From Methylogaea oryzae (GTDB lineage: Bacteria > Pseudomonadota > Gammaproteobacteria > Methylococcales > Methylococcaceae), in assembly GCF_019669985.1 (NCBI RefSeq), contig NZ_AP019782.1, positions 1,108,501 through 1,172,500 on the forward strand: DNA of 64,000 nucleotides, read 5' to 3'. The notes under the pieces were generated by a model. It was not told the DNA's origin, ran no database searches, and saw only the letters and a program-made list of their open reading frames with translations. Numbering within the stretch: position 1 is the stretch's first letter; each line of letters opens with the position of its first letter. The translations under genes were made by a program, and so were the position numbers. Positions 5,719-58,079 of this stretch are shown one piece after another.

Positions 5719-5739
5719 GCCAACGACGGCATGCTGGAT

Positions 5740-6183: not shown

Positions 6184-6190
6184 GGCGGGC

Positions 6191-6592
6191 TTATTCGCTG
6201 TAGCTGGCGTGGGCGGTGGCGGTTTCCCAGATGGCGACTTGCACGACCCGGTAGCCTTGGGCTTGCATGTGGCGGTAAATCATTTTCGCCAGGGCTTCGG
6301 CGGTGGGGTGTTCGTCCAGCACCAGGTGGCGTTCGTTGTTTTGCCGCAGCCAGGGCAGGGCGGGGTCGTCCCGGTGCAGGAGCATGTTGTGGTCGAATTG
6401 TTCGTCGATCAGTTGCCGCGCGGCGGCGTCGATGTCGGAGAAGTCGCACACCATGCCTTGGCGGTCCAGTTCGTCGGCGGCGATGGTGATGGCGGCGCGG
6501 GCGCTGTGGCCGTGCAGGTGGCGGCATTTGCCGGCGTGGTGCATCAGCCGATGGCCGTAGCAGAAGGAGATTTCTTTGGTGACTTTGTACAT
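6191..6592 (-). CDS. queD: 6-carboxy-5,6,7,8-tetrahydropterin synthase (QueD/PTPS family)
   Basis: This 133-residue PTPS-family enzyme would convert 7,8-dihydroneopterin triphosphate to 6-carboxytetrahydropterin, the second step to queuosine and other 7-deazaguanines. The zinc histidines are visible as H14 (CYGHR) and H27/H29 in the CxxxHGH motif at residues 23-29, the arrangement typical of QueD with its catalytic Cys. It also has DFSDI and an FDHNMLL segment with the conserved D-H. It lies between a PilZ gene (15 bp upstream) and a DUF1249 gene (7 bp downstream). No other queuosine gene is in the window. Confidence 0.88.
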   Translation of the reverse strand: MYKVTKEISFCYGHRLMHHAGKCRHLHGHSARAAITIAADELDRQGMVCDFSDIDAAARQLIDEQFDHNMLLHRDDPALPWLRQNNERHLVLDEHPTAEALAKMIYRHMQAQGYRVVQVAIWETATAHASYSE

Positions 6593-6607
6593 GGACTCGA
6601 TAGTGGG

Positions 6608-6904
6608 TTAACTGCCTTTGATGCCTTTTATGTCGGCGGCGATTTCGAAGCTGTCCCCGTCGGGGGTGCAGCGGATCACTTCGACGAAGGCGTCCAGCGG
6701 CGGTGTCAGGCGGTTGTCCGGTAGCACCGATACTTCCAAAGCGTAGCCGATTTCCACGGCGGCCGGTCCTTTGAACAGCAGGCCGCCGCCGCTCAGGTTG
6801 AGGCAGCGGCCTTCGTGGACGGCGCCGTCGGCCAGCGAGCGGTAGCTCAGGCGGCAGTCGGTGGCGATGCGCTGGAATTTGCGCTTGTTGTGGTTGTCCA
6901 GCAT
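6608..6904 (-). CDS. PilZ-domain protein (candidate c-di-GMP receptor)
   Basis: This 98-residue stand-alone PilZ domain has the c-di-GMP-binding arginine motif as KRKFQR at residues 7-12 and the NLSGGG motif (the D/NxSxxG element) near 37-42, so binding residues appear intact. PilZ proteins bind c-di-GMP and alter motility, polysaccharide export or pili through partners. It is the first gene of a three-gene minus-strand group with queD and DUF1249. The window also encodes an EAL enzyme and a GGDEF-EAL enzyme that could control its ligand. Confidence 0.85.
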   Translation of the reverse strand: MLDNHNKRKFQRIATDCRLSYRSLADGAVHEGRCLNLSGGGLLFKGPAAVEIGYALEVSVLPDNRLTPPLDAFVEVIRCTPDGDSFEIAADIKGIKGS

Positions 6905-7170
6905 CGACGGCCTCCTCCGAACAGTTGCTTATGGACGTTTCCGGGTGGAATTTTGCCGCCTAGTATAAACGCGCAACGGTCCGCTGGGCGCGCGCCCGGT
7001 GCCCGGTCTGGCTTGGGTGGGGCTTTTATGTCATATTTCGCGGGCTTTTCCGGGCGGTGGCGCCGGTTAGATTCTGCGCCGATTTCCACGCCCCCGGTCG
7101 TGGATATTTTCCCCAATTTCAGCGGCGGGCCGTATAGGACGGCTGCGCCCAGCATCCGACAGGTTATCGA

Positions 7171-8184
7171 ATGAACAAAGCCATCGTACTCACAGGCATC
7201 ACCACCACCGGCACGCCCCATTTGGGCAATTACGTGGGCGCTATCCGTCCGGCCATCGAACATAGCCGCGATGCCGATGTGCAGCCTTATTACTTCCTGG
7301 CGGACTACCACGCGCTGATCAAGTGCCGCGATCCGGAGCGGGTGCGCCAGTCGTCCCTGGAAATCGCCGCCACCTGGTTGGCCCTGGGGCTGGATACGGA
7401 GAATGCGGTGTTTTATCGCCAGTCGGACGTGCCGGAAATCGCCGAGCTGACTTGGCTGCTGACTTGCGTGACCGCCAAGGGGCTGATGAATCGCGCCCAC
7501 GCCTACAAGGCGGCGGTGCAGGCCAACGAGGAGGCCGGCGAGAGCGACCCGGACAAGGGCGTGACCATGGGGTTGTTCAACTATCCCATCCTGATGGCGG
7601 CGGACATTCTCATGTTCAATGCGAGCAAGGTGCCGGTGGGCAAGGACCAGGTGCAGCACATCGAAATGGCGCGGGACATCGGCCAGCGCTTCAACCATTT
7701 GTACGGCGAGCATTTCGTGTTGCCGGAAGCGGTGGTGGGCGAAGAAACGGCGGTGCTGCTGGGGATGGACGGCCGCAAGATGAGCAAGAGCTACGACAAC
7801 ACCATTCCCTTGTTCGAGCCGGAAAACCGCCTGCGCAAGCTGATCATGAAGATCAAGACCAATTCCTTGCAGCCGGGCGAACCGAAAGACCCCGACACTT
7901 GCACGCTGTTTTGCATCTACCGGGCTTTCGCTACGCCGGAAGAGGTTGCGCAAGTCCGCCAGCGTTATGCCGAAGGCATCGCCTGGGGCGAGATGAAGCA
8001 GTTTTTGTTCGAGTATCTCAACGAACACCTTAAGGCGCCGCGCGAGCGTTACGTGGCGTTGCTGGAGTCGCCGGAACAGATCGAGAAGGCCTTGCAGGAC
8101 GGCGCCCAGCGGGCGCGCGCGGTTGCGGCGCCGTTCGTGCAGCGGCTGCGCGCCAGCGTCGGCATTCGCCCTCTGGTCGGATAA
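7171..8184 (+). CDS. trpS: Tryptophan--tRNA ligase
   Basis: This 337-residue class I aminoacyl-tRNA synthetase has the HIGH-like motif TPHLGNY at residues 15-21 and KMSKS at 203-207. Its length and the GLFNYPILMAADILMF and VGKDQVQHIEMARDI segments are characteristic of bacterial TrpRS. It charges tRNA-Trp in the cytoplasm. It is transcribed away from the PilZ gene across a 266-bp gap, in which I see no T-box or obvious leader peptide. A GC-rich hairpin follows the stop. Confidence 0.97.
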   Translation: MNKAIVLTGITTTGTPHLGNYVGAIRPAIEHSRDADVQPYYFLADYHALIKCRDPERVRQSSLEIAATWLALGLDTENAVFYRQSDVPEIAELTWLLTCVTAKGLMNRAHAYKAAVQANEEAGESDPDKGVTMGLFNYPILMAADILMFNASKVPVGKDQVQHIEMARDIGQRFNHLYGEHFVLPEAVVGEETAVLLGMDGRKMSKSYDNTIPLFEPENRLRKLIMKIKTNSLQPGEPKDPDTCTLFCIYRAFATPEEVAQVRQRYAEGIAWGEMKQFLFEYLNEHLKAPRERYVALLESPEQIEKALQDGAQRARAVAAPFVQRLRASVGIRPLVG

Positions 8185-8207
8185 AGATCGCGTCCCGCTT
8201 TTGTGAC

Positions 8208-8231
8208 GGGGGCGGTGGATTCGCCGCCCCC
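8208..8231 (+). terminator. GC-rich hairpin after trpS
   Basis: GGGGGCGG at 8208-8215 pairs with CCGCCCCC at 8224-8231 across an 8-nt loop, 24 nt after the trpS stop. No U-tract follows, so intrinsic termination is not assured; it could instead protect the 3' end. Confidence 0.35.
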
Positions 8232-8339
8232 GCTTTGCCCGGCGCACCGCCGCTGGGCCGTAACTATTCACGCGCGGCGCAAAACGTGCTTGAATTGAAT
8301 TCGGATTAGGCCTTATCAGGTTTTTATTGGGGGATGATG

Positions 8340-9017
8340 ATGAAAAAGACAGCCACAGCCGTCGCCGCAGCGGCGCTGATTTCCGTGGGAGCGGCGGGTT
8401 GCGCGCAACGGCAAGTGCCGGCGGCGACCGCTTACCCGACCAGCGAACAGCAGAAAATGCAGGCGTCTCACCACTGGGACGTGCTGGCGGAAAATCTGGC
8501 GGCGGGGATCGCCGGCAAGGTTTCGGCGGTTCCCGGCAATCGTCCGGTTTACATCGCGCCCTCCAAGCAAAATACCGATTTCAGTCAAGCGCTGCACGGC
8601 CTCTTGACCAGCCGTCTGGTTGAAAAAGGCGTGGCGGTGACCACCTCGGAGGCGGGCAATCCGCTGGTGCTGAATTACGACAGCCAAGTGGTGAGCTTCC
8701 GCGATCGGGAAGGGCTGCACCCCCTGCCCGGCGATTTCACCCTGATGAAAGGCATTTCCTACCTGATCTATCGGGTCGGCGATTTGTGGACCGCGCCGGC
8801 TTGGGCCATCCTGCCCTTGTCCGAATACCAGGAAAATTATTTCCCGGACGGCACCAACAGCGAAGCCATCGTCAACGTCACCATCAACGACGGGGCCAAG
8901 GTGGTTTACAGCGGCAGCCGCATGTACTACATCAACGACGGCGAAAAAAGCCATTATTCCGGCGCCGCGCTGCCGTTCGCGCCGCACACCAAGAATTACA
9001 AGGCGGTGGACCAATGA
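8340..9017 (+). CDS. Lipoprotein of unknown function upstream of a FlgO-like lipoprotein
   Basis: This is an exported lipoprotein of about 225 residues. Three ATG codons in a row begin at 8334; I chose the third because the only ribosome site (GGGGG at 8329-8333) touches the first. The signal sequence ends in a lipobox with Cys (VGAAGC). The rest is soluble, with PVYIAPSKQNTDFSQALHGL and a later LNYDSQVVSFRD segment that recalls bacterial lipoproteins assembled at a surface structure. I cannot name the family. Its stop overlaps the start of the next gene (ATGA), so both are translated from one transcript. Confidence 0.75.
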   Translation: MKKTATAVAAAALISVGAAGCAQRQVPAATAYPTSEQQKMQASHHWDVLAENLAAGIAGKVSAVPGNRPVYIAPSKQNTDFSQALHGLLTSRLVEKGVAVTTSEAGNPLVLNYDSQVVSFRDREGLHPLPGDFTLMKGISYLIYRVGDLWTAPAWAILPLSEYQENYFPDGTNSEAIVNVTINDGAKVVYSGSRMYYINDGEKSHYSGAALPFAPHTKNYKAVDQ

Positions 9018-9577
9018 ACATGAAGCAGACGCGCAATTGGGTCGCCGTCGGCGTGTTGGCGGCAGTGGCCGCCGGCTGCGGCAAGCAGGCGGTCAAGGAC
9101 GTCGACATCATCAAGGAAAGCTACCAGGCCGGCGAGGTCTTGCAAGCCGCGGCGGAGAGCCCGAAAGGGGTGCACGCCTCCCTGGAACGCCACCGCCCCC
9201 TGATGATCGCCAGCTTCGTCAATATCGACAATGTGCAGGGATCCTCCACCCTGGGCCGCATGCTGGGAGAGCAGGTGGGATCCTACTTCAGCCAGCACGG
9301 TTACGACGTGATCGAGTTGAAGCTGCGCAACGAACTGTTCATCAAGGAGGAAACGGGCGAGCTGATGCTGTCGCGGGAGTTGAAGGATTTGACCCAGGAG
9401 CACGACGCCCAGGCCGTGATCGTCGGCACGTATGCGGTGGCGGCGGACACGGTGTTCGTTACCAGCAAGGTGATTCGCGCGCTGGACGGCGTGATTCTGG
9501 GGTCCTACGACTACAAGCTGCCCATGGGACCCAATGTGAAGGCGCTGTTGCAGAACGACCGCTACAAGCATCGCTGA
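9014..9577 (+). CDS. FlgO-domain outer-membrane lipoprotein
   Basis: This 187-residue lipoprotein has a signal peptide ending in AVAAGC. The mature part matches the FlgO domain: PLMIASFVNIDNVQGSSTLG, then LGEQVGSYFSQHGYDVIELK and a VGTYAVAADTVFV block. FlgO proteins were described as outer-membrane lipoproteins needed for flagellar function in Vibrio, but the domain also occurs away from flagellar loci. It overlaps the preceding lipoprotein gene by 4 nt and ends at a strong bidirectional terminator. Start MNMK was chosen from the ATGA overlap. Confidence 0.8.
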   Translation: MNMKQTRNWVAVGVLAAVAAGCGKQAVKDVDIIKESYQAGEVLQAAAESPKGVHASLERHRPLMIASFVNIDNVQGSSTLGRMLGEQVGSYFSQHGYDVIELKLRNELFIKEETGELMLSRELKDLTQEHDAQAVIVGTYAVAADTVFVTSKVIRALDGVILGSYDYKLPMGPNVKALLQNDRYKHR

Positions 9578-9612
9578 GGCGCGGCTAGCCGAGGACCGGT
9601 TGTTCTCGGCGC

Positions 9613-9653
9613 AAAAAAAAAACAGGCTGTCCGGTTGGACAGCCTGTTTTTTT
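9613..9653. terminator. Bidirectional rho-independent terminator
   Basis: A perfect 10-bp stem, CAGGCTGTCC at 9623-9632 and GGACAGCCTG at 9637-9646, has a GGTT loop. An A-tract of ten lies on the left and a T-tract of seven on the right, so it works for either strand. It separates the convergent FlgO-like and DUF4440-like genes. Confidence 0.9.
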
Positions 9654-45635: not shown

Positions 45636-46586
45636 ATGCGCGAGTCATTTTATGATTTTATTTTCGAGTACATATTTCAAGAGCTTCCGCAAATAGAGCC
45701 GGCCGGCGACGGGGCGCCCGATCGTTTGGCTTTGCTGCCGGACGGACGGGTGGGAGGGGCGTATCGCGGCTTGACGCTTTATTCCGTGTTCCAGCCGATA
45801 TTCGCCGTGGAGGAGGGCAGCGCGCAGTGTTTCGAGGCGTTGCTGAGGGCGCAAAACGACACCGGAGGAAGGGTGTCGCCGGAACGTGTGTTTTCGTTGC
45901 CCGGCGGTCCCGATGAGCATGTCTATTTGGATCGGGTCGCCAGAATAATGCATGCCATGAATTTTATGATTCAATCCGGGATTTTTCGCGGCAAGTTGTT
46001 TTTAAATATCGATCCGTGCCATTTGACCGCCGTGACCAACAGCCATGGGGAATTTTTCGAAAAGGTGCTCCAGCTTTGCGGGTTTAGCCCGAAAAATATC
46101 GTGCTTGAAATACTCGAGAGCGCCGTCGACGACACGCGTCAGTTGCAAAACGCCGTGGCCAATTACCGAAAACTTGGGTTTGGCATCGCTATCGACGATT
46201 TTGGCCGCGACCATTCCAATTTCGAGCGGTTGTGGCGGCTCGAGCCGGATATCGTCAAGCTGGATCGCAGCCTGATAGCCATGGCGGTGCAAAATCAGCG
46301 AATGCGCAACGTGTTGCGATATATCGTGGAAATCATCCACCAGTTGCACGCCAAGGTGGTTTGCGAAGGTATCGAGACCAGCGACCAAGTATCGGCCGCT
46401 CAGGATGCGGGCGTGGATTTTTTGCAAGGCTATTATTTCGCCAAGCCTAGCCCGAATTTGCAGAGAACCCGGTTGTTTCCGTCCGACGCTTCGATGGATA
46501 GCGCGATACCCGCTTGCGAGCGATTATACGGAAGCGAGATGGCCAAATTGGCCGAGTGGGGGATGGCCCAACCGGCGTACCTATAA
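45636..46586 (+). CDS. EAL-domain cyclic-di-GMP phosphodiesterase
   Basis: This 316-residue cytoplasmic enzyme should hydrolyse c-di-GMP to pGpG. The EAL signature is E67-A68-L69 (FEALLR). The other active-site motifs look intact: FLNIDP (Asn), LEILES (Glu), IDDFGRDHSN (Asp pair), VKLDRSLI (Lys) and CEGIET (Glu). The first 50 residues carry no known sensor domain. It is the last gene of the putative insertion between aroC and prmB and is followed by a strong hairpin. Confidence 0.9.
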   Translation: MRESFYDFIFEYIFQELPQIEPAGDGAPDRLALLPDGRVGGAYRGLTLYSVFQPIFAVEEGSAQCFEALLRAQNDTGGRVSPERVFSLPGGPDEHVYLDRVARIMHAMNFMIQSGIFRGKLFLNIDPCHLTAVTNSHGEFFEKVLQLCGFSPKNIVLEILESAVDDTRQLQNAVANYRKLGFGIAIDDFGRDHSNFERLWRLEPDIVKLDRSLIAMAVQNQRMRNVLRYIVEIIHQLHAKVVCEGIETSDQVSAAQDAGVDFLQGYYFAKPSPNLQRTRLFPSDASMDSAIPACERLYGSEMAKLAEWGMAQPAYL

Positions 46587-46676: not shown

Positions 46677-47609
46677 TCAGGCGGCGGCGCGGGCTCGGAA
46701 TACGTCGGCGAATTCGGCCACTTGCTCCGCGGTCAGCAGGAATACGCCGTCGCCGCCCCGCTCGAAATCCAGCCAAGTGAAAGGCACTTCCGGATAGACC
46801 GCTTCCAGCGTTTCCGCACTGCTGCCCACTTCCACCACCAGGATGCCGCCGGCATTCAGGTGGTGGTCCGCGTCGGCCAGGATGCGCCGCACGCAATCCA
46901 ATCCGTCCTCGCCCGATTCCAGCCCCATTTTCGGTTCGGCGTGGTATTCGGCCGGCAGGCTTTCCCATTCGGCGCGATTGACGTAGGGCGGGTTGCTGAC
47001 GATGACGTCGTAACGGGCGTCGCCCAGGCCTTGGAACAAATCGCCCGGCACCAGGCGCAAGCGATCCTCCAACTGGTGCTTGGCCCGGTTGATTTCGGCC
47101 ACCGCCAGCGCGTCGGACGACAGGTCCACGGCGTCTACTCGGGCTTCCGGAAAAGCGTAGGCGCAGCCGATGGCGATGCAGCCGCTGCCGGTGCACAGGT
47201 CCAATACGGCGTTGACTTCGTCCGGATCCACCCAAGGGGCGAATTGCTGTTCGATCAATTCGGCGATGGGGGAGCGGGGTACCAGCACCCGTTCGTCCAC
47301 GTAGAACGGCAGGCCGCAAAACAGCGCTTCTTGGGTCAGGTAGGCGGCCGGCTTGCATTCCTTGATGCGGCGCAGCAACAAGCCGACGACCTGGCGGCGC
47401 TCGTCCGGCGCCAACACCGCATCCATATAAGTGCCGGGCAAGTCCCCGGGCAGGTGCAGCGCGTGCAGCACCAGGGTGGCGGCTTCGTCCAGGGCCGTGG
47501 CGGTGCCGTGGCCGAAAAACAGGCCGGCTTCCTGAAAACGGCTGGCGCCCCAGCGGATATAGTCGCGCAACGTGCGCAACGCCTGTTCGACGGCGGTGGT
47601 ATCGGTCAT
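46677..47609 (-). CDS. prmB: Ribosomal protein L3 N5-glutamine methyltransferase PrmB
   Basis: This 310-residue SAM-dependent methyltransferase modifies Gln150 of ribosomal protein L3. It has the N-terminal helical domain (EQALRTLRDYIRWGASRF), the SAM loop DLCTGSGCIAIG and the catalytic NPPY. It fits PrmB rather than PrmC by the extended N-terminus and the DERVLVPRSPIAELI segment. I placed the start at the ATG at 47609. It is separated from aroC by the EAL gene region. Confidence 0.9.
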   Translation of the reverse strand: MTDTTAVEQALRTLRDYIRWGASRFQEAGLFFGHGTATALDEAATLVLHALHLPGDLPGTYMDAVLAPDERRQVVGLLLRRIKECKPAAYLTQEALFCGLPFYVDERVLVPRSPIAELIEQQFAPWVDPDEVNAVLDLCTGSGCIAIGCAYAFPEARVDAVDLSSDALAVAEINRAKHQLEDRLRLVPGDLFQGLGDARYDVIVSNPPYVNRAEWESLPAEYHAEPKMGLESGEDGLDCVRRILADADHHLNAGGILVVEVGSSAETLEAVYPEVPFTWLDFERGGDGVFLLTAEQVAEFADVFRARAAA

Positions 47610-47751
47610 GGAGATGGAGGGCGGGTGGTGGGGGAAAAACGACGCGCACATGATAGCGTATAGATCGCTGAAATCCGATTATCCTTCCCTTCGCTTCGGT
47701 TTTCCGCTAAAAAAACCGACTGGAAATCTAGGGTTTTCGAAGATCCGAGCC

Positions 47752-48891
47752 ATGCTTGACCGACAGCCGATGTATCTGACAGCCACGGGCGACGATGAGT
47801 TGGACGCCGGCTTGGCCGCGCTGCAAGGCAGCGGCGGCGTGCTGGCCTTGGTGGCGGAAGCCGATGGGGCGTGCATTGCGCGCTTGCAGGCGCTTGCCGG
47901 GGCGAGGGGCATCGTCTTGTGCGGCGGCCTGTTCCCCGAGCTGCTGGCGCACGGCGCTTCCCATAAACGGGGCGTGGTGTTTCTTCCGCTGGATGAGACG
48001 CCGGTGTTGCGGTTGGTCGAAGGCGTCGCCGAGGGCGGCGAAGCGGCGCTGGCGGCCGCTTGCGACGCTTTGGGCGATGCGGCGGACCGATTGGGCGGCG
48101 AAGGCCGCGAGGCCTCCCTGTTGCTGTTGTTCGACGGCATGCTGCCCAACATCAGCACGCTGTTGGACGCGATATATCGCGACGTGGGCGACGAAGTGCG
48201 TTATTTCGGCGCCAATGCCGGCAGCGAAACGTTCCGCTCCGTGCCCTGCCTGTTCGACAACAGCCGTTTTGTCGCCGACGCCGCTTTGCTGGTGTTGCTC
48301 GCCGACCACGCCGGCGCCTGGGCCGAGCACGGTTACGCGACGCCGGACGAAATGCTCTCCGCCACGTCCACGCGCGGCAACCAAATCCAGACCATCGATT
48401 GGCGCCCCGCCTTCGAGGCCTATAGCGAACTGGTCGCCAAGCACCATGGGGTCGGCATTACGCGCGACAATTTTTATCGATGGGCGGTGCACTATCCCTT
48501 GGGCTTGCCGCGCATGGACGGCGGCTTGATCGTGCGCATTCCCGTCGGGCTGAGCGAGGACGGCGCGCTGGTGTGCATCGGTGAAATTCCGGAAAACGCT
48601 TTGCTGTGCGTGTTGCACGCCAGCGACTCGCGCAGCCGCGATACCCTGGACCGCCTCGCCGGCCATGTGGACAAGACGCCATCGGCGGCCGTGGCGGCGT
48701 TTTACTGCGCCGGCCGGCGCATGCAGCTCGGCGAGCAATTCGCCGTGGAGTTGGAGCATTTGGCGCGCCGTTTCGCTCCCAGGCCGATGTTCGGCGCCTT
48801 GTCGCTGGGAGAAATCGGCAGCGCCTGGAATCGCGGCTATCCGCTGTTCCACAACGCCGCCATACTCTGCGCGCCCTGGAGCCGCGCCTGA
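47752..48891 (+). CDS. FIST-domain sensor protein (NosP-like)
   Basis: This 379-residue cytoplasmic protein has the FIST_N domain (about residues 25-190, with LCGGLFPELLAHGAS, SLLLLFDGMLPN and YFGANAG) and the FIST_C domain (about 200-360, ending ALSLGEIGSAWN). FIST proteins are ligand sensors; NosP members bind haem and nitric oxide and control a histidine kinase encoded beside them. Here a hybrid kinase gene starts 1 nt after the stop. I use the ATG at 47752; an ATG at 47770 is possible. Confidence 0.85.
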   Translation: MLDRQPMYLTATGDDELDAGLAALQGSGGVLALVAEADGACIARLQALAGARGIVLCGGLFPELLAHGASHKRGVVFLPLDETPVLRLVEGVAEGGEAALAAACDALGDAADRLGGEGREASLLLLFDGMLPNISTLLDAIYRDVGDEVRYFGANAGSETFRSVPCLFDNSRFVADAALLVLLADHAGAWAEHGYATPDEMLSATSTRGNQIQTIDWRPAFEAYSELVAKHHGVGITRDNFYRWAVHYPLGLPRMDGGLIVRIPVGLSEDGALVCIGEIPENALLCVLHASDSRSRDTLDRLAGHVDKTPSAAVAAFYCAGRRMQLGEQFAVELEHLARRFAPRPMFGALSLGEIGSAWNRGYPLFHNAAILCAPWSRA

Positions 48892-48892
48892 C

Positions 48893-50968
48893 ATGGAACG
48901 CGAACGCATACTGTCCATTTTGTACGAAATGGCTTTGCTGACCGCCTCGGAAACCGAGGTGGGGCCCTTGCTGGAAAAATTCCTGCAACGGCTGATGTTT
49001 CATGCGGATTTTCCCTGCGGCTTGTTCCTGCGCATACCCGAGACCGGCCCCGCCGACGCGACCCGCCGGTCGGTGTTGTTGGAAGCCGTGATCGGCGGCC
49101 GGCGCATCGGGCTTGCCGGCGAATGGTTGTCCTTGCCCGTCGGCTTGCTGGAAGGCGGGGCGGCGCTTAGCACGGACGCGGAAATGATTCAGGCCGCCTT
49201 TCCCGCTGCGCCTTACCGCACCGCGTTGCGGCTGCCGGTGGCGGAGCAAGGGGCGTTCCTGTTGTTGGCGCCGGAGCAACCCGCGTCGCCCTTGCCTCTG
49301 GCCACGGTATTCGAGCCGGTGTTAGCCAATTTCGCCAAGACGCTGCAGTTGTGCCGCGCCAACGCGGAAATCACCGCGGGGTTGCGCGCGGAGGTGGAGC
49401 GCCATCGGCAAACCATGCTGGAGCGGGAGCGGTCGCAGAATTTGCTGACCCTGGTGCTGGACACGATCCCGGCCCGGGTATTCTGGAAGGACCGCGACGG
49501 CGTGTTTCTCGGCTGCAACCGGGCGTTCGCGAGGGACGCGGGGGTCGACGAGCCGTCGCAGCTGGTGGGCAAGACCGATTACGACATGGGGTGGCGGGCG
49601 CAAGCCGAGCGTTACCGCGAGGACGACCGGGCGGTCATCGAGAGTGGCCAGGCCAAACTGTACTTCGAGGAACAGCAGCCGCGCGACGACGGCATCTTTT
49701 GGCTGGAAACCAGCAAGATTCCCTTGACCGGCGCGGACGGCGAGATTATCGGCGTGCTGGGGACTTACGAGGACATCACCGCCCGCAAGCGCATAGAAAC
49801 CGAGCTGGTGAGGGCCAAGGAGCTGGCGGAGCAAGCCAGCCAAGCCAAGTCGGAATTTCTGTCGCGCATGAGCCACGAATTGCGCACTCCGCTCAACGCC
49901 GTGCTGGGCTTCGGCCAGATACTGGCGGACGAGGAGCCGGACCAGCCGCTGACGCTGGATCAAAAGGACTGCGTGGAGCATATCGTCAACGCCGGCCAGC
50001 ACCTTCTTCATTTGGTCAACGACATACTGGATTTGGCCAAGATCGAGGCCGGCGCCATTCATCTCGCGCCGGAGCTCATTGATATCGACGAGCTGTTGCA
50101 GGAATGCCTGGACATCATCCGTCCCCAGGCCGCCCAACGGGGCATCTCCTTGATCGAGCCGGCGCCGGGGGGCGGGACAGTCTCGGCGGATCGCACCCGG
50201 TTGCGGCAAGTGCTGCTCAATCTGTTGTCCAACGCGGTGAAATACAATCGTCCGGAAGGCGCGATCCGGGTTTCCGTGCAGCCGCTAGCGGGCAAGGTCC
50301 GCCTCGCCGTGGAGGACACCGGCCAAGGGATGACGCCGGAACAATTGAGCGGGCTGTTCGAGGCTTTTAATCGTCTGGGCGCCGAACGCAGCGGCACGGA
50401 AGGCGCCGGCATCGGCTTGGTCATCACCAAGCGCTTGGTGGAAGCCATGGGCGGCAGCATCGGCGCCGACAGCCGCGCCGGCGTCGGTTCCACTTTTTGG
50501 TTCAGCCTGCCCGCGGCGGCGGTTCTCGACGAGGGCGACGCCGCCCCTCCGCCCGCGCCGGAACCGGTGCGCTATAGTCCCTTTTCCGGCTTGTCGGAGG
50601 GGAAAACCCTGCTCTATGTGGAGGACAACCCCAGCAACAGGCTGTTGGTGGCGAATATCGTTAAGCGTTATCCCCAATTGCGCCTGGTGACCGCCCAGAA
50701 CGGCAAGGAAGGCCTGCTCGTGGCTCTGGAGACGCGGCCGGATTTGCTCATCCTCGACATCAACCTGCCGGACATGACCGGCTTGCAGTTGCTGCAACGG
50801 CTGCGCGGCCACGCCGAAACCCGCGACATCAAGGCGATCGCCCTTAGCGCCAATTCGCTGCCGGAAGACGTGGGCAAAGGCGTTTCGGCCGGTTTTGCGG
50901 CGTACCTGACCAAGCCGTTGCAAGTGGACATGTTCGTGGACACCTTGGCGCAGTTGCTGCGAAGCTGA
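48893..50968 (+). CDS. Hybrid histidine kinase with GAF-like, PAS and receiver domains
   Basis: This 691-residue soluble kinase has an N-terminal GAF-like domain (about 1-150), a PAS domain (about 180-300, FWKDRDGVFLGCN and the PAC end YEDITARKR), HisKA with H328 in SHELRTP, and an HATPase (N-box LNLLSNAVKYN, G2 GTEGAGIGL). A receiver at about 575-690 carries phosphoacceptor D622. It has no membrane helix. It is translationally close-coupled to the FIST gene, like NahK and NosP, so the FIST protein probably controls its autophosphorylation. No partner HPt protein lies in the window. Confidence 0.93.
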   Translation: MERERILSILYEMALLTASETEVGPLLEKFLQRLMFHADFPCGLFLRIPETGPADATRRSVLLEAVIGGRRIGLAGEWLSLPVGLLEGGAALSTDAEMIQAAFPAAPYRTALRLPVAEQGAFLLLAPEQPASPLPLATVFEPVLANFAKTLQLCRANAEITAGLRAEVERHRQTMLERERSQNLLTLVLDTIPARVFWKDRDGVFLGCNRAFARDAGVDEPSQLVGKTDYDMGWRAQAERYREDDRAVIESGQAKLYFEEQQPRDDGIFWLETSKIPLTGADGEIIGVLGTYEDITARKRIETELVRAKELAEQASQAKSEFLSRMSHELRTPLNAVLGFGQILADEEPDQPLTLDQKDCVEHIVNAGQHLLHLVNDILDLAKIEAGAIHLAPELIDIDELLQECLDIIRPQAAQRGISLIEPAPGGGTVSADRTRLRQVLLNLLSNAVKYNRPEGAIRVSVQPLAGKVRLAVEDTGQGMTPEQLSGLFEAFNRLGAERSGTEGAGIGLVITKRLVEAMGGSIGADSRAGVGSTFWFSLPAAAVLDEGDAAPPPAPEPVRYSPFSGLSEGKTLLYVEDNPSNRLLVANIVKRYPQLRLVTAQNGKEGLLVALETRPDLLILDINLPDMTGLQLLQRLRGHAETRDIKAIALSANSLPEDVGKGVSAGFAAYLTKPLQVDMFVDTLAQLLRS

Positions 50969-51061: not shown

Positions 51062-52594
51062 ATGGATATCAATATTAAAAGCCTAACGAACCTGCTGCCG
51101 CAGTCGTCCCAGGCGTCCCAGGCATCGCAGCAGTTGGCGCAACTGCCGGACAAAGTGGCGGCCAGTACGCTGACCAGCCTTATGCAAACGGGCGTTCAGC
51201 TTACCGCCATGGTGGTCCAGGCGAAGGGCGGCAATCAGTACCTGCTGGAGGTGTTCCAGCCGGGTAGCCAGAACCGCGTTCAGGTGACCGCCGAATCGGT
51301 GACGCCGTTGGCCACCGGCGGCCCGTTGCAGCTGGAGGTGGTCAAGGGGGGCTCACCGCCGCAGGTGCGCGTCATGCAGCAGACCGGGGCGGAGGGAACC
51401 CCGGTGGAAAACGCGCTGCGCCAGTTCCTGCCGAAGCAGCAAGAGTTGTCCAGCCTGATTACCCAGTTGGCCAATTTCGCCAAAAGCGGCGGCGACGCCG
51501 CCTTGCCGGCCGATATCCAGCAATTGGCGCGAAATCTGCTTGCAAGCTTGCCCGATCAAAATACCCTGGCCAACGCGGAAGGCCTGAAGCAGGCGGTAAG
51601 GGATTCGGGCCTGTTTTTGGAGTCCAAATTGGCGCAGTTGGCGCAATCGGATGCCTTGGCGGGCGGAAAGGCCGTGGATCCGTCCTTGCCCAACGACCTC
51701 AAAGCCAAGCTATTGGTGCTGGCGGAGGCCCTCACCGGCCGCGCCGCGTCAACCGGTCAGCCGACGGGACAGGCGGCCGGCGGGCAAGCCGCGGCTAATG
51801 CGCCTAATCCCCAGACGGCGCCCAATGCGGCGCCGGCCAATACGCCGCCGGGGCTGCCGCTGCCGAACCCGGCGGCGGCAGCGGAACCCGCGTCGACATC
51901 GGCATCGGCATCACCCGCCGCCGGCCAGCCAGCGGCAGCGAGCGGCGCGGATCAAAACGCTGCCGCGACCGACTCCGCCGCGGGCAAAGGCCATGGCGCG
52001 GTTGCCGCGGCCCCTACCCAATCCGGCGATCAGGCCGTCGCGGCCAACAAGCCGACGGCGGATTCGGCGCAGCAAGCCGCCGCTGCCGCCCAGCTCGGCG
52101 CCGCGGAGCCGGCGCTAAAGGATCTGACCAGCCAGACGGAGGGCGCTTTGGCCAAGCTCGTCCTGAATCAACTGGCTTCGTTGCCCCAGCCGGATGCCAG
52201 CCAGCAAGTTTGGCGCTTCGATATTCCCTTTACGCTGGCTGGGAATCCCTCGTCGGCCAAGCTGGAAATCGAGCGCGAGGCATACCGGGAAGGGCAGGGT
52301 GAAAGCGATTCCGCCCAGGACAGCGCGCCTTGGACCGTGACCGTGGAATTGAATCCGCCGGGTCTGGGTAAATTTGGCGGCAAGGTCACCTTGCATCAGG
52401 GGGCCATCAACGCGTTTTTCTGGAGCGACGACCCGACCACGGCGGACTTGGTGCGCGATAATTTGCCGTTGCTGGAGGCGCGTTTGGAGGCGGCGGGACT
52501 CAAAACCGGCCGTCTGGATGCCTCGGTGGGGGTGGCGCCCGCCTCAGCCGCCAAGCCCCTGTCTTCCATGCCTTTGTTGGATTTGCACGCATGA
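51062..52594 (+). CDS. fliK: Flagellar hook-length control protein FliK
   Basis: This 510-residue protein has a variable N-terminal half, a long Ala/Pro/Gln-rich linker (about 225-345) and a C-terminal Flg_hook domain (about 400-500) with WTVTVELNPPGLGKFGGKVT and LVRDNLPLLEARLEAAGL. FliK measures hook length and triggers the substrate switch of the flagellar export gate. Its last codons overlap the FlhB-C gene by 4 nt. A flagellar role is expected, although other flagellar genes are outside the window. Confidence 0.88.
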   Translation: MDINIKSLTNLLPQSSQASQASQQLAQLPDKVAASTLTSLMQTGVQLTAMVVQAKGGNQYLLEVFQPGSQNRVQVTAESVTPLATGGPLQLEVVKGGSPPQVRVMQQTGAEGTPVENALRQFLPKQQELSSLITQLANFAKSGGDAALPADIQQLARNLLASLPDQNTLANAEGLKQAVRDSGLFLESKLAQLAQSDALAGGKAVDPSLPNDLKAKLLVLAEALTGRAASTGQPTGQAAGGQAAANAPNPQTAPNAAPANTPPGLPLPNPAAAAEPASTSASASPAAGQPAAASGADQNAAATDSAAGKGHGAVAAAPTQSGDQAVAANKPTADSAQQAAAAAQLGAAEPALKDLTSQTEGALAKLVLNQLASLPQPDASQQVWRFDIPFTLAGNPSSAKLEIEREAYREGQGESDSAQDSAPWTVTVELNPPGLGKFGGKVTLHQGAINAFFWSDDPTTADLVRDNLPLLEARLEAAGLKTGRLDASVGVAPASAAKPLSSMPLLDLHA

Positions 52595-52875
52595 GCGAGG
52601 GTAGGCCGAAGCAGGAGCTGGACCTGGCGGTCGCCCTGCGTTACGAGGGCAGCGGCGTCCCTAAAGTGGTCGCCAAGGGCAAGGGGTTGGTGGCGGAGCA
52701 GATCGTCGCCAAAGCCAAGGAACATAAAGTGCCTTTGAAATCCGATACCGGGCTGGTTAGCTTGCTGTCCAGCGTGCCGTTGGGCGACGAGATTCCCCGC
52801 GAACTTTATTTGGCGGTGGCCGAAGTGTTGGCGTTCGCCTATATGCTCAGCGAAAAAAAGACGCTCCGTCCATGA
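52591..52875 (+). CDS. fhlB: Stand-alone FlhB C-terminal domain protein (FhlB)
   Basis: This 94-residue protein is the cytoplasmic FlhB_C/YscU_C part alone: LAVALRYEGSGVPKVVAKGKG, VPLKSDTGLVSLLSSVPLGD and IPRELYLAVAEVLAFAY. It lacks the membrane domain and the self-cleaving NPTH site. Such FhlB proteins occur beside fliK and can stand in for part of FlhB in export switching. Its gene is overlapped by both neighbours (4 nt each). Confidence 0.93.
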   Translation: MSEGRPKQELDLAVALRYEGSGVPKVVAKGKGLVAEQIVAKAKEHKVPLKSDTGLVSLLSSVPLGDEIPRELYLAVAEVLAFAYMLSEKKTLRP

Positions 52876-53714
52876 GGGCCTTCGTTATGCGCTTGCGCTT
52901 TATCCTGACCGTTGCCTTGGTGTTGTCGAGCCACGCGGTCGCCGCCGCGCCTCCCTTGGAGGTGATTCCGCTCAACCATCGGTTCGCCGAGGAAATGGCG
53001 CCGCTGCTGCGGCCGTTGCTGGCGCCGGGCGATGTGTTGGTGCCCAGCGGCACCCAACTCATCGTGCAAACCAGTCCGGAGCGGCTGGCGCAGATTCGGC
53101 AGCTGTTGCAGTCGCTGGATAAGAGTTCGCACCGGTTGATGATTACCGTCAGGCAAGGCGGCAATTTATCCAGGGAGGCGCTGGATGCGGAGGCGGGGCT
53201 GCAAGGAGGGATGTCCCTGGATGGCTCGGGGCAGCCGTCGTTGCGCGTACGAGGCCATTTCGGCCAGACCGACGGCGAGGAAAGCCGCAACGCCGAACAG
53301 CGCGTGCAGACACTGGAGGGCGCGCCGGCGCAAATCCAGTTCGGCGCAAGCCGGCCGGCGACGGTTCAGGTCATCGATGTCCATGGCAATCGCGTGACGG
53401 CGGCGCCGGGCATCGGATATCAGGATATCACCACCGGCTTTGCCGTGGTGGCGCGTTTGATTGGCGACGGCAACGTGCGGGTGGACGTGACGCCATGGTC
53501 GGCTCGCCCCGATCCGTTCGACAGCCGTAACGTGCGCAATCAGCAGGCGTCCGCCTCGTTGCAGGCCAGACTCGGCGAGTGGGTGATCGTCGGCGGTCAA
53601 AACAACGAGCAATCGGCGCAACAGTCTCAGTGGCTGGGGCATCGCTATGCCACCTGGAGCGAAAGGGATACGGTCGCCATCAAGGTGGAGGATTTGGATG
53701 CGGGAAAGCCTTAG
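52872..53714 (+). CDS. Exported secretin-N-domain-like protein (truncated secretin form)
   Basis: This 280-residue exported protein has a signal peptide (about 1-25), then a secretin N1-like domain: LEVIPLNHRFAEEMAPLLRP with IRQLLQSLDKSSHRLMIT, as in GspD/PilQ N-domains. A C-terminal part (about 175-270) has the look of a secretin beta domain (GFAVVARLIGDGNVRVDVTP, then GEWVIVGGQ), but it is too short to form a full pore. Translation is coupled to fhlB by a 4-nt overlap. Function unknown; perhaps a periplasmic partner for export. Confidence 0.75.
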   Translation: MRAFVMRLRFILTVALVLSSHAVAAAPPLEVIPLNHRFAEEMAPLLRPLLAPGDVLVPSGTQLIVQTSPERLAQIRQLLQSLDKSSHRLMITVRQGGNLSREALDAEAGLQGGMSLDGSGQPSLRVRGHFGQTDGEESRNAEQRVQTLEGAPAQIQFGASRPATVQVIDVHGNRVTAAPGIGYQDITTGFAVVARLIGDGNVRVDVTPWSARPDPFDSRNVRNQQASASLQARLGEWVIVGGQNNEQSAQQSQWLGHRYATWSERDTVAIKVEDLDAGKP

Positions 53715-55095: not shown

Positions 55096-55872
55096 ATGCG
55101 CAATGTAACGCTCCATGAGTCCCGCGGACACCGGTTTGTTTTACTCAACGAAACCGAATCCGGAGAAGAGGAAGGCGTGCGTTCCAATCAATACCTGGTG
55201 ACGCACGAAGGCTGCGGCGTCCTGTTGGACCCGGGCGGTTTCGGCGTGATGCCCAGGGTGCTGGTGGAGATGCTGCGCTATGTGCAGCCGGATCAAATCA
55301 AGGCCGTGATCCTCTCTCACCAGGATCCCGACATCGTCGGCGGCCTGTCGACCTGGCTGGAGTTGCTGGACTCGCCGGTCTACGTGTCGCGCATCTGGGT
55401 ACGTTTTCTTCCCCATTACGGCATTGCCGGCATCAAGCGCTTTGTCGGCGTGCCGGACGAAGGCATGAGCCTGGACATCGCGCCCGGTTTCCGTCTGGAG
55501 CTGCTGCCGGCTCACTTCCTGCATTCCGAAGGGCAAATCAACGTCTACGATCCCATCGCCCGCGTGTTGTTCACCGGCGATATCGGCGCGGCCATGCTGC
55601 CGGACGACCAGGAGCACGAGTACGTGGACGATTTGGAAAGCCATTTGCCGCACATCGAATGGTTCCATCGCCGCTACATGTGCTCCAACAAGGCCGCCAG
55701 GCTTTGGGCCGAGCGGGTTTCGCGCCTGGACATCGATTTCATCGCCCCCCAGCATGGTCCGATTTACCGCGGCAAGGCGGTCAAGCAGTTCCTCGAATGG
55801 TTCGCCAACCTGCAATGCGGCATCGACCTCATGGAAGCCGCCGGCAGCTTTTCCCTGGAAGCAGCGCCATGA
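55096..55872 (+). CDS. Flavodiiron-like MBL-fold protein (oxygen-binding di-iron domain, ODP)
   Basis: This 258-residue metallo-beta-lactamase-fold protein is of the flavodiiron/ODP type. Metal-site residues are H75, D77 and D79 in SHQDPD, H143 in LHSEG, D162 in FTGDIG and H220 in PQHGPI. Position 80 is Ile rather than the His of the classic HxExDH motif. It has no flavodoxin domain, so it should be an O2 or NO sensor or scavenging partner rather than a complete reductase. The gene has a GAGGTGA site and overlaps the GGDEF-EAL gene by 4 nt (ATGA). Confidence 0.87.
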   Translation: MRNVTLHESRGHRFVLLNETESGEEEGVRSNQYLVTHEGCGVLLDPGGFGVMPRVLVEMLRYVQPDQIKAVILSHQDPDIVGGLSTWLELLDSPVYVSRIWVRFLPHYGIAGIKRFVGVPDEGMSLDIAPGFRLELLPAHFLHSEGQINVYDPIARVLFTGDIGAAMLPDDQEHEYVDDLESHLPHIEWFHRRYMCSNKAARLWAERVSRLDIDFIAPQHGPIYRGKAVKQFLEWFANLQCGIDLMEAAGSFSLEAAP

Positions 55873-58079
55873 TGGTTCCCCATCCCGCGGGAATATTGCC
55901 TTCCATCGATATCCACGGCTTGCCCGCCGAGCTGATCCCCGATCACTTGGAGCAGCTGCGCTTGGCGATGATGGAACGCTTCGCCGCCCTCAGCGAAAGC
56001 CAGAGCCGCACCCGCGCCTTCGGCCAGTACATCACCCACATGATCAACGACATGCACGACGACGTGGTGGGCGAGTTGACGCGGGCCTTGGACCAGGCGG
56101 AGGGTCAGGACGAAGTTTGCGAAATTCTCCAGCAGGTGCTGGTGCGCTGCGAAATGCTGCAGCAAGGCATCGAGCTCTTGTCCAACGAGCGGCAGCGCCA
56201 GTGGCACAAGAACGGCGATTTCATCCGCAAGGCCATGCTGTACTTCAACCAGACGGTGGAGGACCTGGCGTCCACGATCGTCAGCAAAGACCTGCTGGAA
56301 CGGCAGGGCAAAGTGCTGGAAAGCATCATCCTGTCCCACGAGCGCATTTCCCAGTGGAAGGATTTCGTTCAGGAAATCCTCGGTGATTTCCACAGCATTT
56401 TTCCCTTCGACTTTTTCTTCATCGCCTTCGCCGAAGAGAACGGGCTGACGCTGTACGTTTACTACATGGGCGACTACGCCGAGGACGAGCGGCGCGCGGC
56501 GCGGGAATTGTTGTCCGTGGAAATGCTCAATCAGCTGCAGCTGCCGGTGGACGCCGCCCTGGACGTGGAAGAGTTCCAGGTCATGGAAAGGCGCCGCCGC
56601 ACCCAGGTCAGCGATGTGGAGATGATTACCGTGGCGGTGCCGGAGCACGCGCCCAAGCTGGCCGGTATGCTGGGCGTGGCCTACGCCACCAGCATGTCGC
56701 ACAGCCCGCAGGAAGCGGCCATCATTCGCTCGATTCTTTCCGTGATGGTGATGGTGGTGGGCTCCAGCAAGGCCTTGTCGCGCACCATGTCGGAGCTGGA
56801 ATACCACTCGGTGCACGATCCCCTGACGGGCTTGCACAACCGCCGTTATTTCAGCGACATGCTGGAATACGAAATCGGCCGTTCGGAACGCCACGGCCAC
56901 GAGTTCTGCCTGTTGTTCTGCGACTTGGACGATTTCAAGGACATCAACGACTCGTACGGCCACCTGATGGGCGACCAGGCGTTGTGCGCCATCGGCGAAG
57001 CATTGAAGGCGGGGACGCGCAAAGGCGACGTGGTGGCGCGCATGGGGGGCGACGAATTCGCCCTTATCCTCACCGAAACCCGGCCGGAAAACGCGTTGCA
57101 GGTCGGGGAGAAGCTGCGTAGCGCCATTCGCAACATTCGCTTCGACGCGCCCGACGGCAAGCATTTCCACATCACCGTGTCCATCGGACTGATCGCCTAC
57201 CCGCGGGACGCCCAGACCATCACCGACATCATGGCGGGGGTGGACACCGCGCTGTATCGGGCCAAGGGCCTGGGCAAGGACGGCGTGTGCAATTTCGACG
57301 GGCTGGGCGACAACGTGCGCACGGTGCGCGACACCCGCAATTTCGCCGAAACCTTGCGCGAAGCCTTGAGCGACCAGCGCGTCGTGCCTTTCTTCCAGCC
57401 CATACTGGAAACCGCCACCGGCCGCATCCACGGCTTCGAGACGCTGGCGCGCATCTTGAACAAGGACGGCACCACCACGGCGGCGGGCGCGTTCATCGAC
57501 ACCATCAACAAATACGGGTTGGGGCGCGACCTGGATCGTTGCATGATCCACAAGACTTTCGAGGAGATGCGCCGCAAGTTGCACGTTCAGGACGGGCTGC
57601 GGGTGTTTATCAACCTGTCGCCCCAGGAGATCCAGGGGCGCAACATCCTCAGTTTCGCCGAACGCCTGTGCGAGGAAATGGCGCTGTCGCCCAGCCAGGT
57701 GGTGTTCGAAATCACCGAGCAGGACGCCATCAGCGACATGACCCATATGCGCCGCTTCCTCACCAACCTGCGCGCCAGCGGCTTCGCGTTCGCCCTGGAC
57801 GACTTCGGCAGCGGCTACAACTCCTTCCACTACCTGCGCGAACTGCACTTCGAGTACGTCAAAATCGACGGCGCTTTCGTGCGCAACATCATCAATTCCA
57901 AGGTGGATTACGCCTTGGTCAATCACCTTACCCATTTGTGCCGCGACCTGGGCATGCTGACCATCGGCGAGTTTGTCGAGGGTCCGGAGATCTTGGCCGC
58001 CATGCGGGACATCGGCATCGATTTCGCCCAGGGCTATTTCCTGGGCATGCCGTTGCCGGAGATTCGTAAGGAAAATTAG
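55869..58079 (+). CDS. GGDEF-EAL cyclic-di-GMP enzyme coupled to the ODP sensor
   Basis: This 736-residue soluble protein has a long N-terminal region (about 1-310) with heptad-like helices and a possible GAF-like domain near 165-280. The GGDEF domain has the signature at residues 393-397 and looks active. The EAL domain has ETL at 524-526 but keeps FINLSP, FEITEQ, LDDFGSGYNS, VKIDG, EFVEG and AQGYFLG. It could both make and break c-di-GMP. Its start overlaps the ODP gene, so the ODP protein is the probable sensor input. Confidence 0.92.
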   Translation: MMVPHPAGILPSIDIHGLPAELIPDHLEQLRLAMMERFAALSESQSRTRAFGQYITHMINDMHDDVVGELTRALDQAEGQDEVCEILQQVLVRCEMLQQGIELLSNERQRQWHKNGDFIRKAMLYFNQTVEDLASTIVSKDLLERQGKVLESIILSHERISQWKDFVQEILGDFHSIFPFDFFFIAFAEENGLTLYVYYMGDYAEDERRAARELLSVEMLNQLQLPVDAALDVEEFQVMERRRRTQVSDVEMITVAVPEHAPKLAGMLGVAYATSMSHSPQEAAIIRSILSVMVMVVGSSKALSRTMSELEYHSVHDPLTGLHNRRYFSDMLEYEIGRSERHGHEFCLLFCDLDDFKDINDSYGHLMGDQALCAIGEALKAGTRKGDVVARMGGDEFALILTETRPENALQVGEKLRSAIRNIRFDAPDGKHFHITVSIGLIAYPRDAQTITDIMAGVDTALYRAKGLGKDGVCNFDGLGDNVRTVRDTRNFAETLREALSDQRVVPFFQPILETATGRIHGFETLARILNKDGTTTAAGAFIDTINKYGLGRDLDRCMIHKTFEEMRRKLHVQDGLRVFINLSPQEIQGRNILSFAERLCEEMALSPSQVVFEITEQDAISDMTHMRRFLTNLRASGFAFALDDFGSGYNSFHYLRELHFEYVKIDGAFVRNIINSKVDYALVNHLTHLCRDLGMLTIGEFVEGPEILAAMRDIGIDFAQGYFLGMPLPEIRKEN

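What the first reader, a model, noticed from the sequence alone, without database searches (positions are those of the whole stretch)
55096..58079. Flavodiiron-like ODP protein translationally coupled to a GGDEF-EAL enzyme
A stand-alone di-iron MBL-fold protein with H75, D77, D79, H143, D162 and H220 but Ile at position 80 (the classic HxExDH His missing) shares an ATGA overlap with a dual GGDEF-EAL enzyme. ODP domains are known O2-binding sensors in bacterial chemoreceptors. The pair suggests that O2 or NO directly sets c-di-GMP level, which would suit an organism living at an oxygen/methane interface. No flavodoxin part exists, so it is not a normal flavodiiron reductase. The physical coupling is seen; the sensing role is inference.
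Basis: partly seen in the sequence, partly recalled or inferred. Interest (0 to 1): 0.75.

Follow-up and report, generated by a model that had tools for sequence, protein, structure and literature searches.

The report
Oxygen-sensor gene paired with c-di-GMP enzyme
In methane-oxidising, iron-oxidising and related bacteria, a gene for a close relative of a proven iron-based oxygen sensor sits directly in front of a gene for an enzyme that makes and breaks the signal molecule c-di-GMP, which suggests a way by which oxygen could tell a cell to swim or to settle.

Summary
Confirmed and strengthened. Window 55096-55872 encodes a 258-aa ODP-family protein (Pfam E 2.9e-71) whose nearest solved relatives are the T. 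maritima and T. denticola 'chemotaxis sensor ODP' structures. It overlaps by ATGA a GGDEF-EAL gene (55869-58079). The 'missing' histidine (Ile80) is the family rule; in T. maritima ODP a glutamine replaces that ligand (PMC7785958), and the corresponding Gln219 is kept here. The pairing is not chance: in 79 of 80 relatives the partner follows directly (the 80th contig ends there). In 301 genomes of the order, all 61 listed ODP rows at >=52% identity (56 genomes) precede the partner's N-terminal domain; that domain was found away from an ODP only at a contig end and as one weak fragment. The 15 more distant ODPs examined have other partners, 9 of them mini-chemoreceptors. The partner's N-terminus is modelled as a helical hairpin plus GAF domain. 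PAS-receptor or protoglobin genes adjoin some pairs. Best reading: ODP is an in-trans O2 (perhaps O2/Fe(II)) sensor subunit of a c-di-GMP enzyme. Binding, ligand and direction of control are not shown; a linked-chain model gave no confident interface. ODPs beside other signalling genes were reported in 2019: a new variant of a known kind.

The parts
55096..55872 (+). ODP gene, 258 aa: stand-alone metallo-beta-lactamase-fold, predicted di-iron sensor protein
   Evidence: PF19583 E 2.9e-71; 6qrq E 1.7e-80, 6qnm E 2.8e-77
55318..55335 (+). metal motif H75-Q-D77-P-D79-I80 (ODP signature; the host's flavodiiron protein has H in place of I80)
55869..55872 (+). ATGA stop/start overlap of the two genes
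55869..58079 (+). GGDEF-EAL gene, 736 aa
55941..56285 (+). partner residues 25-139: long helical hairpin, inferred ODP docking region
   Evidence: model of residues 1-312, mean pLDDT 88.4; docking is inference
56286..56804 (+). partner residues 140-312: GAF-like domain and signalling helix leading into GGDEF
   Evidence: Z 12.1 to 4g3k; Z 11.0 to DosP 9bgv residues 255-382
56811..57278 (+). GGDEF domain, residues 315-470, with intact GGDEF and an RxxD site (RKGD) five residues before it
57348..58052 (+). EAL domain, residues 494-728, ETLAR in place of EALxR, other EAL-family motifs kept

Best explanation
The pair is a two-subunit sensor-effector. The soluble ODP protein holds a di-iron site that reacts with O2 (as in T. 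denticola ODP, probably forming a peroxo-diiron state, and so also reporting Fe(II)). It acts on the N-terminal helical hairpin/GAF module of the co-translated GGDEF-EAL protein, and the GAF signalling helix shifts the balance between c-di-GMP synthesis (GGDEF) and breakdown (EAL). Oxygen, or the O2/Fe(II) balance at a redox interface, thereby sets c-di-GMP and the choice between swimming and attachment. Shown: ODP homology with the metal ligands kept, intact catalytic motifs, near-obligate gene coupling. Modelled: hairpin plus GAF. Inferred: O2 as ligand, direct contact, and sign of the response.
For: ODP matches the solved sensor ODPs by sequence; a model of the L014 relative matches them at 44-50% identity and TM-score on target 0.89-0.92, among them the peroxo-diiron entry 6r9n. 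H75/D77/D79/H143/D162/H220 and I80 invariant in 82 of 82; Q219 in at least 80 of 82 and in 15 of 15 ODPs of other classes. Partner next to ODP in 79 of 80 loci, the miss being a contig end; a start codon in the partner's frame within 12 nt of the ODP stop in 79 of 80 pairs, L041 being broken in frame. 61 of 61 listed ODP rows at >=52% identity (56 of 301 genomes) precede the partner domain. 3 of 3 carriers found in another class are pairs too, one with a GGDEF-only partner. Catalytic motifs kept. More distant ODPs: 9 of 15 behind mini-receptors. Aer-like PAS region on the same strand beside the pair in 16 of 80 loci and after the host's own second pair; a protoglobin-type ORF is the next gene after the partner in 5 of 80. 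DosP, an O2-sensing c-di-GMP enzyme, has a similar domain in the position before GGDEF.
Against: No biochemistry. The linked-chain model of ODP plus partner N-terminus had pTM 0.50: no confident interface. Distance correlation of ODP with the N-terminal region (0.75) is lower than with the catalytic part (0.88); partial correlation 0.09, or 0.29 without the divergent L009: co-inheritance is seen, but no special co-evolution with the proposed docking region. One partner (second pair of G058, L122) sits behind an ODP that lost metal ligands. The GAF domain could have its own ligand. Foldseek gave no hit at E<=1e-3 for the N-terminal model. Most of the 80 loci (about three in four) and the window pair have no O2-sensor gene found beside them.
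Confidence: 0.7

Rival explanations
1. ODP reports chiefly Fe(II) (or the metal state of the cell) rather than O2: the occupied versus empty di-iron site is the signal.
For: T. denticola ODP is reported as an Fe(II) and O2 sensor (title of Muok 2019, seen in reference lists). Several carriers are iron oxidisers by their record titles (Gallionella, Sideroxydans, Ferrovum; their lifestyle is general knowledge).
Against: The carriers include many methane and methanol oxidisers. Where sensor genes adjoin the pair they are PAS receptors and protoglobins, i.e. O2/redox types.
Confidence: 0.3
2. ODP is a nitric oxide sensor for the c-di-GMP enzyme.
For: Flavodiiron relatives reduce NO (established knowledge). 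A FIST-domain gene before a hybrid histidine kinase, an arrangement known for NO-sensing NosP (recalled), lies about 6 kb upstream in the window.
Against: The nearest solved homologues are O2-binding sensors, not NO reductases. The FIST pair is a separate neighbour, and its link to ODP is untested.
Confidence: 0.12
3. ODP is an enzyme (O2, peroxide or NO scavenger, or a hydrolase) that only shares a transcript with the GGDEF-EAL gene.
For: Metallo-beta-lactamase fold; flavodiiron relatives are reductases.
Against: No flavodoxin electron-transfer part and no sixth His. The genome has a separate flavodiiron protein. 9 of 15 ODPs of the more distant kind follow mini-chemoreceptors, so signalling outputs are a common theme. 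Coupling is near obligate.
Confidence: 0.1
4. The partner's GAF domain is the true sensor and ODP is a structural subunit whose metal site matters little.
For: GAF fold in the model. One natural ODP lacks metal ligands beside an intact-looking partner (L122).
Against: Metal ligands are invariant in 82 of 82 ODPs (loci L009-L089 plus window). The L122 genome (G058) also has a second pair whose ODP is 66% identical to the query over 253 residues, so L122 may be a decaying copy.
Confidence: 0.12

Closest known systems
T. denticola ODP (TDE2498) with chemoreceptor TDE2496; T. maritima ODP (PDB 6qnm, 6r9n, 6qrq, 6qwo)
   Same: Same stand-alone ODP fold (44-50% identity to the L014 relative), same HQDPD[V/I] and PQHG motifs, gene coupled to a soluble signalling protein (PMC7666581, passages).
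   Different: Output is a GGDEF-EAL c-di-GMP enzyme, not a chemoreceptor acting on CheA.
E. coli DosP/DosC (PdeO/DgcO) oxygen-sensing c-di-GMP enzymes
   Same: O2-responsive control of c-di-GMP enzymes (PMC8846402, passages); a domain similar to the GAF-like one precedes GGDEF in DosP.
   Different: Sensor is a heme PAS or protoglobin domain of the enzyme itself, not a separate di-iron protein. NCBIfam DosP model scores 162.3 bits against a cut-off of 857.
Bacterial hemerythrin-DGC and hemerythrin-HD-GYP proteins
   Same: Di-iron site coupled to c-di-GMP enzymes, including one from Ferrovum (PMC8846402, passages).
   Different: Hemerythrin domain on the same chain; ODP is a metallo-beta-lactamase fold on a separate chain.
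Flavodiiron proteins
   Same: Related metallo-beta-lactamase di-iron core.
   Different: They have HxExDH and a flavodoxin domain; absent here.

Membership tests
ODP (oxygen-binding diiron protein, PF19583) | Pfam ODP model above curated cut-off, over the whole model | tested here: met
   239.8 bits against 27.2, positions 1-194 of 194. The model alone does not separate ODP from flavodiiron proteins: L092 also passes it at 75.4 bits
ODP (oxygen-binding diiron protein, PF19583) | H-x-D-x-D with no His after the second Asp, further H, D, H (as in 6qrq and 6qnm) | tested here: met
   HQDPD[IV] in 42 of the 43 ODP rows, the exception being L122
ODP (oxygen-binding diiron protein, PF19583) | Gln before the last His replaces the missing ligand (stated for T. 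maritima ODP in PMC7785958, passage) | tested here: met
   Q219-H220 here, PQHG in both solved ODPs; Q219 in at least 80 of 82 and in 15 of 15 other ODPs; the host's flavodiiron protein reads PAHG
ODP (oxygen-binding diiron protein, PF19583) | No flavodoxin domain | tested here: met
   258 aa, only MBL-type Pfam hits
ODP (oxygen-binding diiron protein, PF19583) | Reversible O2 binding as a peroxo-diiron species | not testable with these tools
   needs purified protein
ODP-chemoreceptor system (T. denticola type) | Gene beside a cytoplasmic chemoreceptor lacking a sensor domain | tested here: not met
   partner is GGDEF-EAL; 9 of 15 ODPs of the 36-43% class do sit behind partial MCP-signal-like proteins
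Flavodiiron protein | HxExDH motif and flavodoxin domain | tested here: not met
   HQDPDI and no flavodoxin hit; compare L092
GGDEF-EAL c-di-GMP enzyme | Both domains above cut-off with catalytic motifs | tested here: met
   ETL replaces EAL in this protein (T in 66 of 81 partners); the motif Glu is kept in 76 of 81 (5 gaps)
GGDEF-EAL c-di-GMP enzyme | Measured cyclase or phosphodiesterase activity | not testable with these tools
   none
DosP equivalog (NF008467) | Score above curated cut-off | tested here: not met
   162.3 bits against 857; best stretch covers residues 311-730 only

The most novel reading that the evidence does not exclude
ODP is an exchangeable stand-alone O2/Fe(II) sensor subunit that has been shared out between two outputs in the same bacteria: chemoreceptors (taxis) and a dedicated hairpin-GAF-GGDEF-EAL enzyme (c-di-GMP). 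In some lineages Aer-like receptors and protoglobin sensors are built into the same gene runs, so that redox-gradient organisms run taxis and attachment from one set of oxygen sensors. This would be a separate-chain, metallo-beta-lactamase-fold gas sensor of c-di-GMP, a class not seen in the 2022 census passages that were read.
Probability: 0.45. Interest if true: 0.68.

Novelty: new variant of a known kind. Interest (0 to 1): 0.52.

Why it matters
c-di-GMP networks are known to read O2 through heme-PAS, protoglobin and hemerythrin domains of the enzymes themselves (PMC8846402, passages). A separate di-iron subunit with a near-obligate c-di-GMP partner would add a sensor class, would suggest how methane and iron oxidisers settle at an oxygen interface, and gives a small two-protein system in which O2, Fe(II) and NO effects on c-di-GMP can be tested directly. 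A relative in the isolate M. buryatense 5G (L051) makes genetic tests possible.

Tried and rejected
Flavodiiron reductase: rejected, since motif and flavodoxin are absent.

Gene fusion in distant carriers: long open frames suggested it, but in L128, L129 and L130 the ODP and the partner are two separate overlapping frames.

Chance overlap or lineage habit: rejected.

Co-evolution of ODP with the N-terminal region: no excess over the catalytic part.

Predicted complex: pTM 0.50, inconclusive; a single linked chain cannot show dimer contacts.

A known fold for the hairpin: the listed matches in that part are generic helical ones; 'no known fold' is not claimed, since the hairpin was not searched alone.

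Promoter/terminator scan around the pair: no promoter-like site; 3 terminator-like sites against 4.4 expected by chance, none at the end of the pair.

Rows dropped or weak: L104 gave no ODP ORF and is in neither the context counts nor the tree. L049 has no downstream DNA. Partners of L062 and L079 are broken in frame, those of L070 and L087 cut by contig ends; these four were left out (77 pairs used). L041 is broken in frame at the partner's start. In one search the script's start choice is wrong for L012, L031, L041 and L075, so 'overlap 37, 0-20 nt 42, 38 nt 1' is approximate; one search replaces it. The tree used 22 of the 80 loci plus L009's and the window's kin as listed there. In one search the match list was cut by the tool; the rows at >=52% identity that it showed were used. 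One search kept the best 80 of 96 relatives. The N-terminal fragment in G180 (E 1.4e-10, 121-aa frame, not behind an ODP) was fetched (L124) but gave no tblastn hit and stays unexplained.

Literature: the primary ODP paper (Muok 2019) is not held; its abstract is recalled only. In the listings shown by searches (10 to 30 rows each at most, of up to 3,995 papers) and in the passages read, no paper named an ODP with a GGDEF-EAL partner; subscription papers and the unlisted rows were not seen.
Full report
OBSERVATION. Window 55096-55872 encodes a 258-aa protein and 55869-58079 a 736-aa protein on the same strand. They overlap by ATGA, with a second in-frame ATG three bases on. The first matches Pfam ODP over the whole model (239.8 bits, cut-off 27.2). 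The second has Pfam GGDEF (residues 315-470) and EAL (494-728), and no family over cut-off in residues 1-309.

WHAT THE FIRST PROTEIN IS. The nearest solved structures are the oxygen-binding diiron proteins 6qrq/6qwo (E 1.7e-80) and 6qnm/6r9n (E 2.8e-77); flavodiiron proteins come far behind (best E 1.4e-11). A model of the L014 relative, linked to its partner's N-terminus, matches them at TM-score 0.89-0.92 on the target and 44-50% identity; entry titles include 'chemotaxis sensor ODP', and 6r9n is 'Peroxy diiron species'. Both solved ODPs have V where this protein has I80, and HQDPD[IV] holds in 42 of 43 ODP rows of the tree set. The missing His is therefore the ODP rule. PMC7785958 (passage) states that in T. 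maritima ODP this His is replaced by a glutamine at motif 5; that fits Q219 in A-P-Q219-H220-G, which is in both solved ODPs, in at least 80 of 82 close relatives and in 15 of 15 ODPs of other kinds, while the host's flavodiiron protein reads PAHG. H75, D77, D79, I80, H143, D162 and H220 are unchanged in 82 of 82. The host genome has three PF19583 matches: this one, a second pair at 1.26 Mb, and a flavodiiron protein with NHLEPDH and a flavodoxin domain.

THE SECOND PROTEIN. The residues GGDE and the two ends of RxxD stand in 80 of 81 partners, the other being an alignment gap; the EAL-motif Glu in 76 of 81 and DDFG in 77 of 81, the rest gaps. The N-terminal 312 residues, modelled from a 43-row alignment, gave pLDDT 88.4 and pTM 0.71: two long helices (25-76, 81-159), an alpha/beta domain, and a helix running into GGDEF. 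VIA-align puts residues 140-312 on GAF domains of many proteins (4g3k: Z 12.1, rmsd 3.2, 142 aligned) and on DosP residues 255-382 (9bgv: Z 11.0, rmsd 2.8, 126 aligned). Foldseek's best E was 2.4e-3, so this is a fold-level statement only.

THE PAIR IS A UNIT. A scan of species genomes kept the best 80 of 96 relatives, at 63-77% identity: by record titles Methylobacter, Methylomonas, Methylotuvimicrobium, Methylotenera, Gallionella, Sideroxydans, Ferrovum, Zoogloea, Rhodoferax, Curvibacter and others. In 79 of 80 the partner, N-terminal region included, follows directly; in L049 the contig ends at the ODP. With the host's second pair counted (80 pairs), a start codon in the partner's frame lies within 12 nt of the ODP stop in 79 of 80; in L041 the frame is broken there.

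INDEPENDENT TEST. In 301 genomes of the order, ODP at E<=1e-20 occurs in 142. The listed rows at >=52% identity number 61 (60 genes, one split in two) in 56 genomes. A separate search with the N-terminal alignment over the same set found 57 genomes. All 61 ODP rows have the domain on the same strand within 400 nt. Three of 63 N-terminal rows are not behind an ODP: G020, a second piece of the G132 gene, and a weak 121-aa fragment in G180, which has a normal pair elsewhere. G020 is a contig end: the match begins at residue 149, about 14 bases from the edge. The G180 fragment stays unexplained. Fisher table 56/0/1/244, p 1.5e-60; genomes are related, so p is only a guide. In 398 genomes of the phylum, 3 besides the host carry the domain, and all 3 are ODP pairs. 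One (L129) has a partner with GGDEF but no EAL.

OTHER ODP KINDS. Of the more distant ODPs, 15 were examined (36-43% identity). 9 follow a ~200-aa mini-receptor: 7 with Pfam or tblastn support (L106, L109, L112, L113, L115, L116, L117) and 2 by resemblance (L110, L114). MCPsignal is over cut-off in 1 of the 4 scanned (L109). 3 follow a Roadblock/LC7 protein (Pfam in L103; L105 and L118 by a shared C-terminus); 3 have no obvious partner. In the tree a branch at 97/91 parts these 15 from the rest; the flavodiiron outgroup is too distant to root it. So the same sensor type goes with a taxis-type or a c-di-GMP output.

NEIGHBOURS. An Aer-like PAS region (51-60% identity to that of the second pair) lies beside the pair on the same strand in 16 of 80 loci: 11 starting 0.8-2.1 kb upstream, 5 with aligned starts 13-66 nt after the partner. 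It also follows the host's second pair after 44 nt and the L122 pair. The three of these proteins scanned whole (L009, L025, L122) are PAS-MCPs. The host has 4 such PAS regions in 4.02 Mb, which would give about 0.7 in the 686 kb of flanks; the loci are related and from other taxa, so this is a guide, not a test. A protoglobin-type ORF is the next gene after the partner in 5 of 80 loci (L021, L027, L028, L038, L045), with Pfam Protoglobin confirmed in the 2 scanned. The window has no match to either.

AGAINST. Distances of ODP and partner N-terminus correlate (0.75; best of 1000 shuffles 0.27; 77 pairs), but those of ODP and the catalytic part correlate more (0.88), and the partial correlation with the N-terminus is 0.09, or 0.29 without L009. 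The linked-chain model had pTM 0.50, so there is no confident interface. L122 has HQHPDI and a deletion over the H220 stretch, beside a partner that keeps its motifs; its genome also has a pair with a full-length ODP.

MECHANISM. ODP, in trans, reads O2 at a di-iron site and alters the hairpin/GAF module, which changes c-di-GMP synthesis against breakdown. The GGDEF-only partner in L129 suggests that synthesis is at least one controlled activity (inference). The host has two PmoA/AmoA-family genes, which fits the methane/oxygen setting.

KNOWN. PMC7319448 (passages) says that Muok 2019 found ODPs in operons with chemoreceptor genes, in operons with other signalling genes, and fused to signalling domains. 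PMC7666581 (passages) describes T. denticola ODP coupled to TDE2496. PMC6978683 (passages) calls ODP an auxiliary sensory subunit. PMC8846402, a census of c-di-GMP stimuli (passages), lists heme-PAS, protoglobin, hemerythrin and flavin-PAS sensors; 'lactamase' and 'diiron' occur 0 times there, and 'ODP' 0 times. Muok 2019 itself was not read. Hence: new variant of a known kind.

Noticed in passing
window 47572-48891 and 48581-50968 (+): FIST-domain protein directly before a PAS-HisKA-HATPase-receiver hybrid kinase; resembles NO-sensing NosP/NahK pairs (names recalled). With ODP this would be two gas-sensing units within about 10 kb.
   Followed up: partly
window 45636-46586 (+): Stand-alone EAL-domain protein, 316 aa, in the same stretch as the FIST pair and the ODP pair.
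   Followed up: no
window 51062-53714 (+): FliK-like, FlhB C-terminal-like and secretin-like genes in a row about 1.4-4 kb upstream of the pair.
   Followed up: no
L009 (own genome C1:1252000-1270000), 5053-9628 (-): Second ODP/GGDEF-EAL pair of the host, ODP 66% but partner N-terminus only 25-29% identical, followed by an Aer-like PAS chemoreceptor.
   Followed up: partly
L122 5179-5859 (+): Natural ODP with lost metal ligands (HQHPDI, deletion over H220) in front of an intact-looking partner and an Aer-like receptor.
   Followed up: partly
L129 1000-2430 (-): Partner with GGDEF but no EAL domain, next to a nucleoside diphosphate kinase-like ORF (named by eye).
   Followed up: partly
L103, L105, L118: ODP genes beside Roadblock/LC7-type sequence (Pfam hit in L103) and two further ORFs: a third ODP context, possibly a small GTPase system (guess).
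   Followed up: no
L106, L109, L110, L112, L114-L117: About 200-aa mini-receptors with only a partial MCP signalling region immediately upstream of ODP, in L109 and L110 behind a CheB-like ORF (by eye).
   Followed up: partly
own genome C1:3384089-3384802 and 3387293-3388006 (-): Two PmoA/AmoA-family genes with the same score about 3.2 kb apart, probably a duplicated methane monooxygenase operon.
   Followed up: no
G180:C120:6552-6902 (+), in L124: Weak match to the partner's N-terminal domain (E 1.4e-10) in a 121-aa frame away from any listed ODP: relic, fragment or chance.
   Followed up: partly
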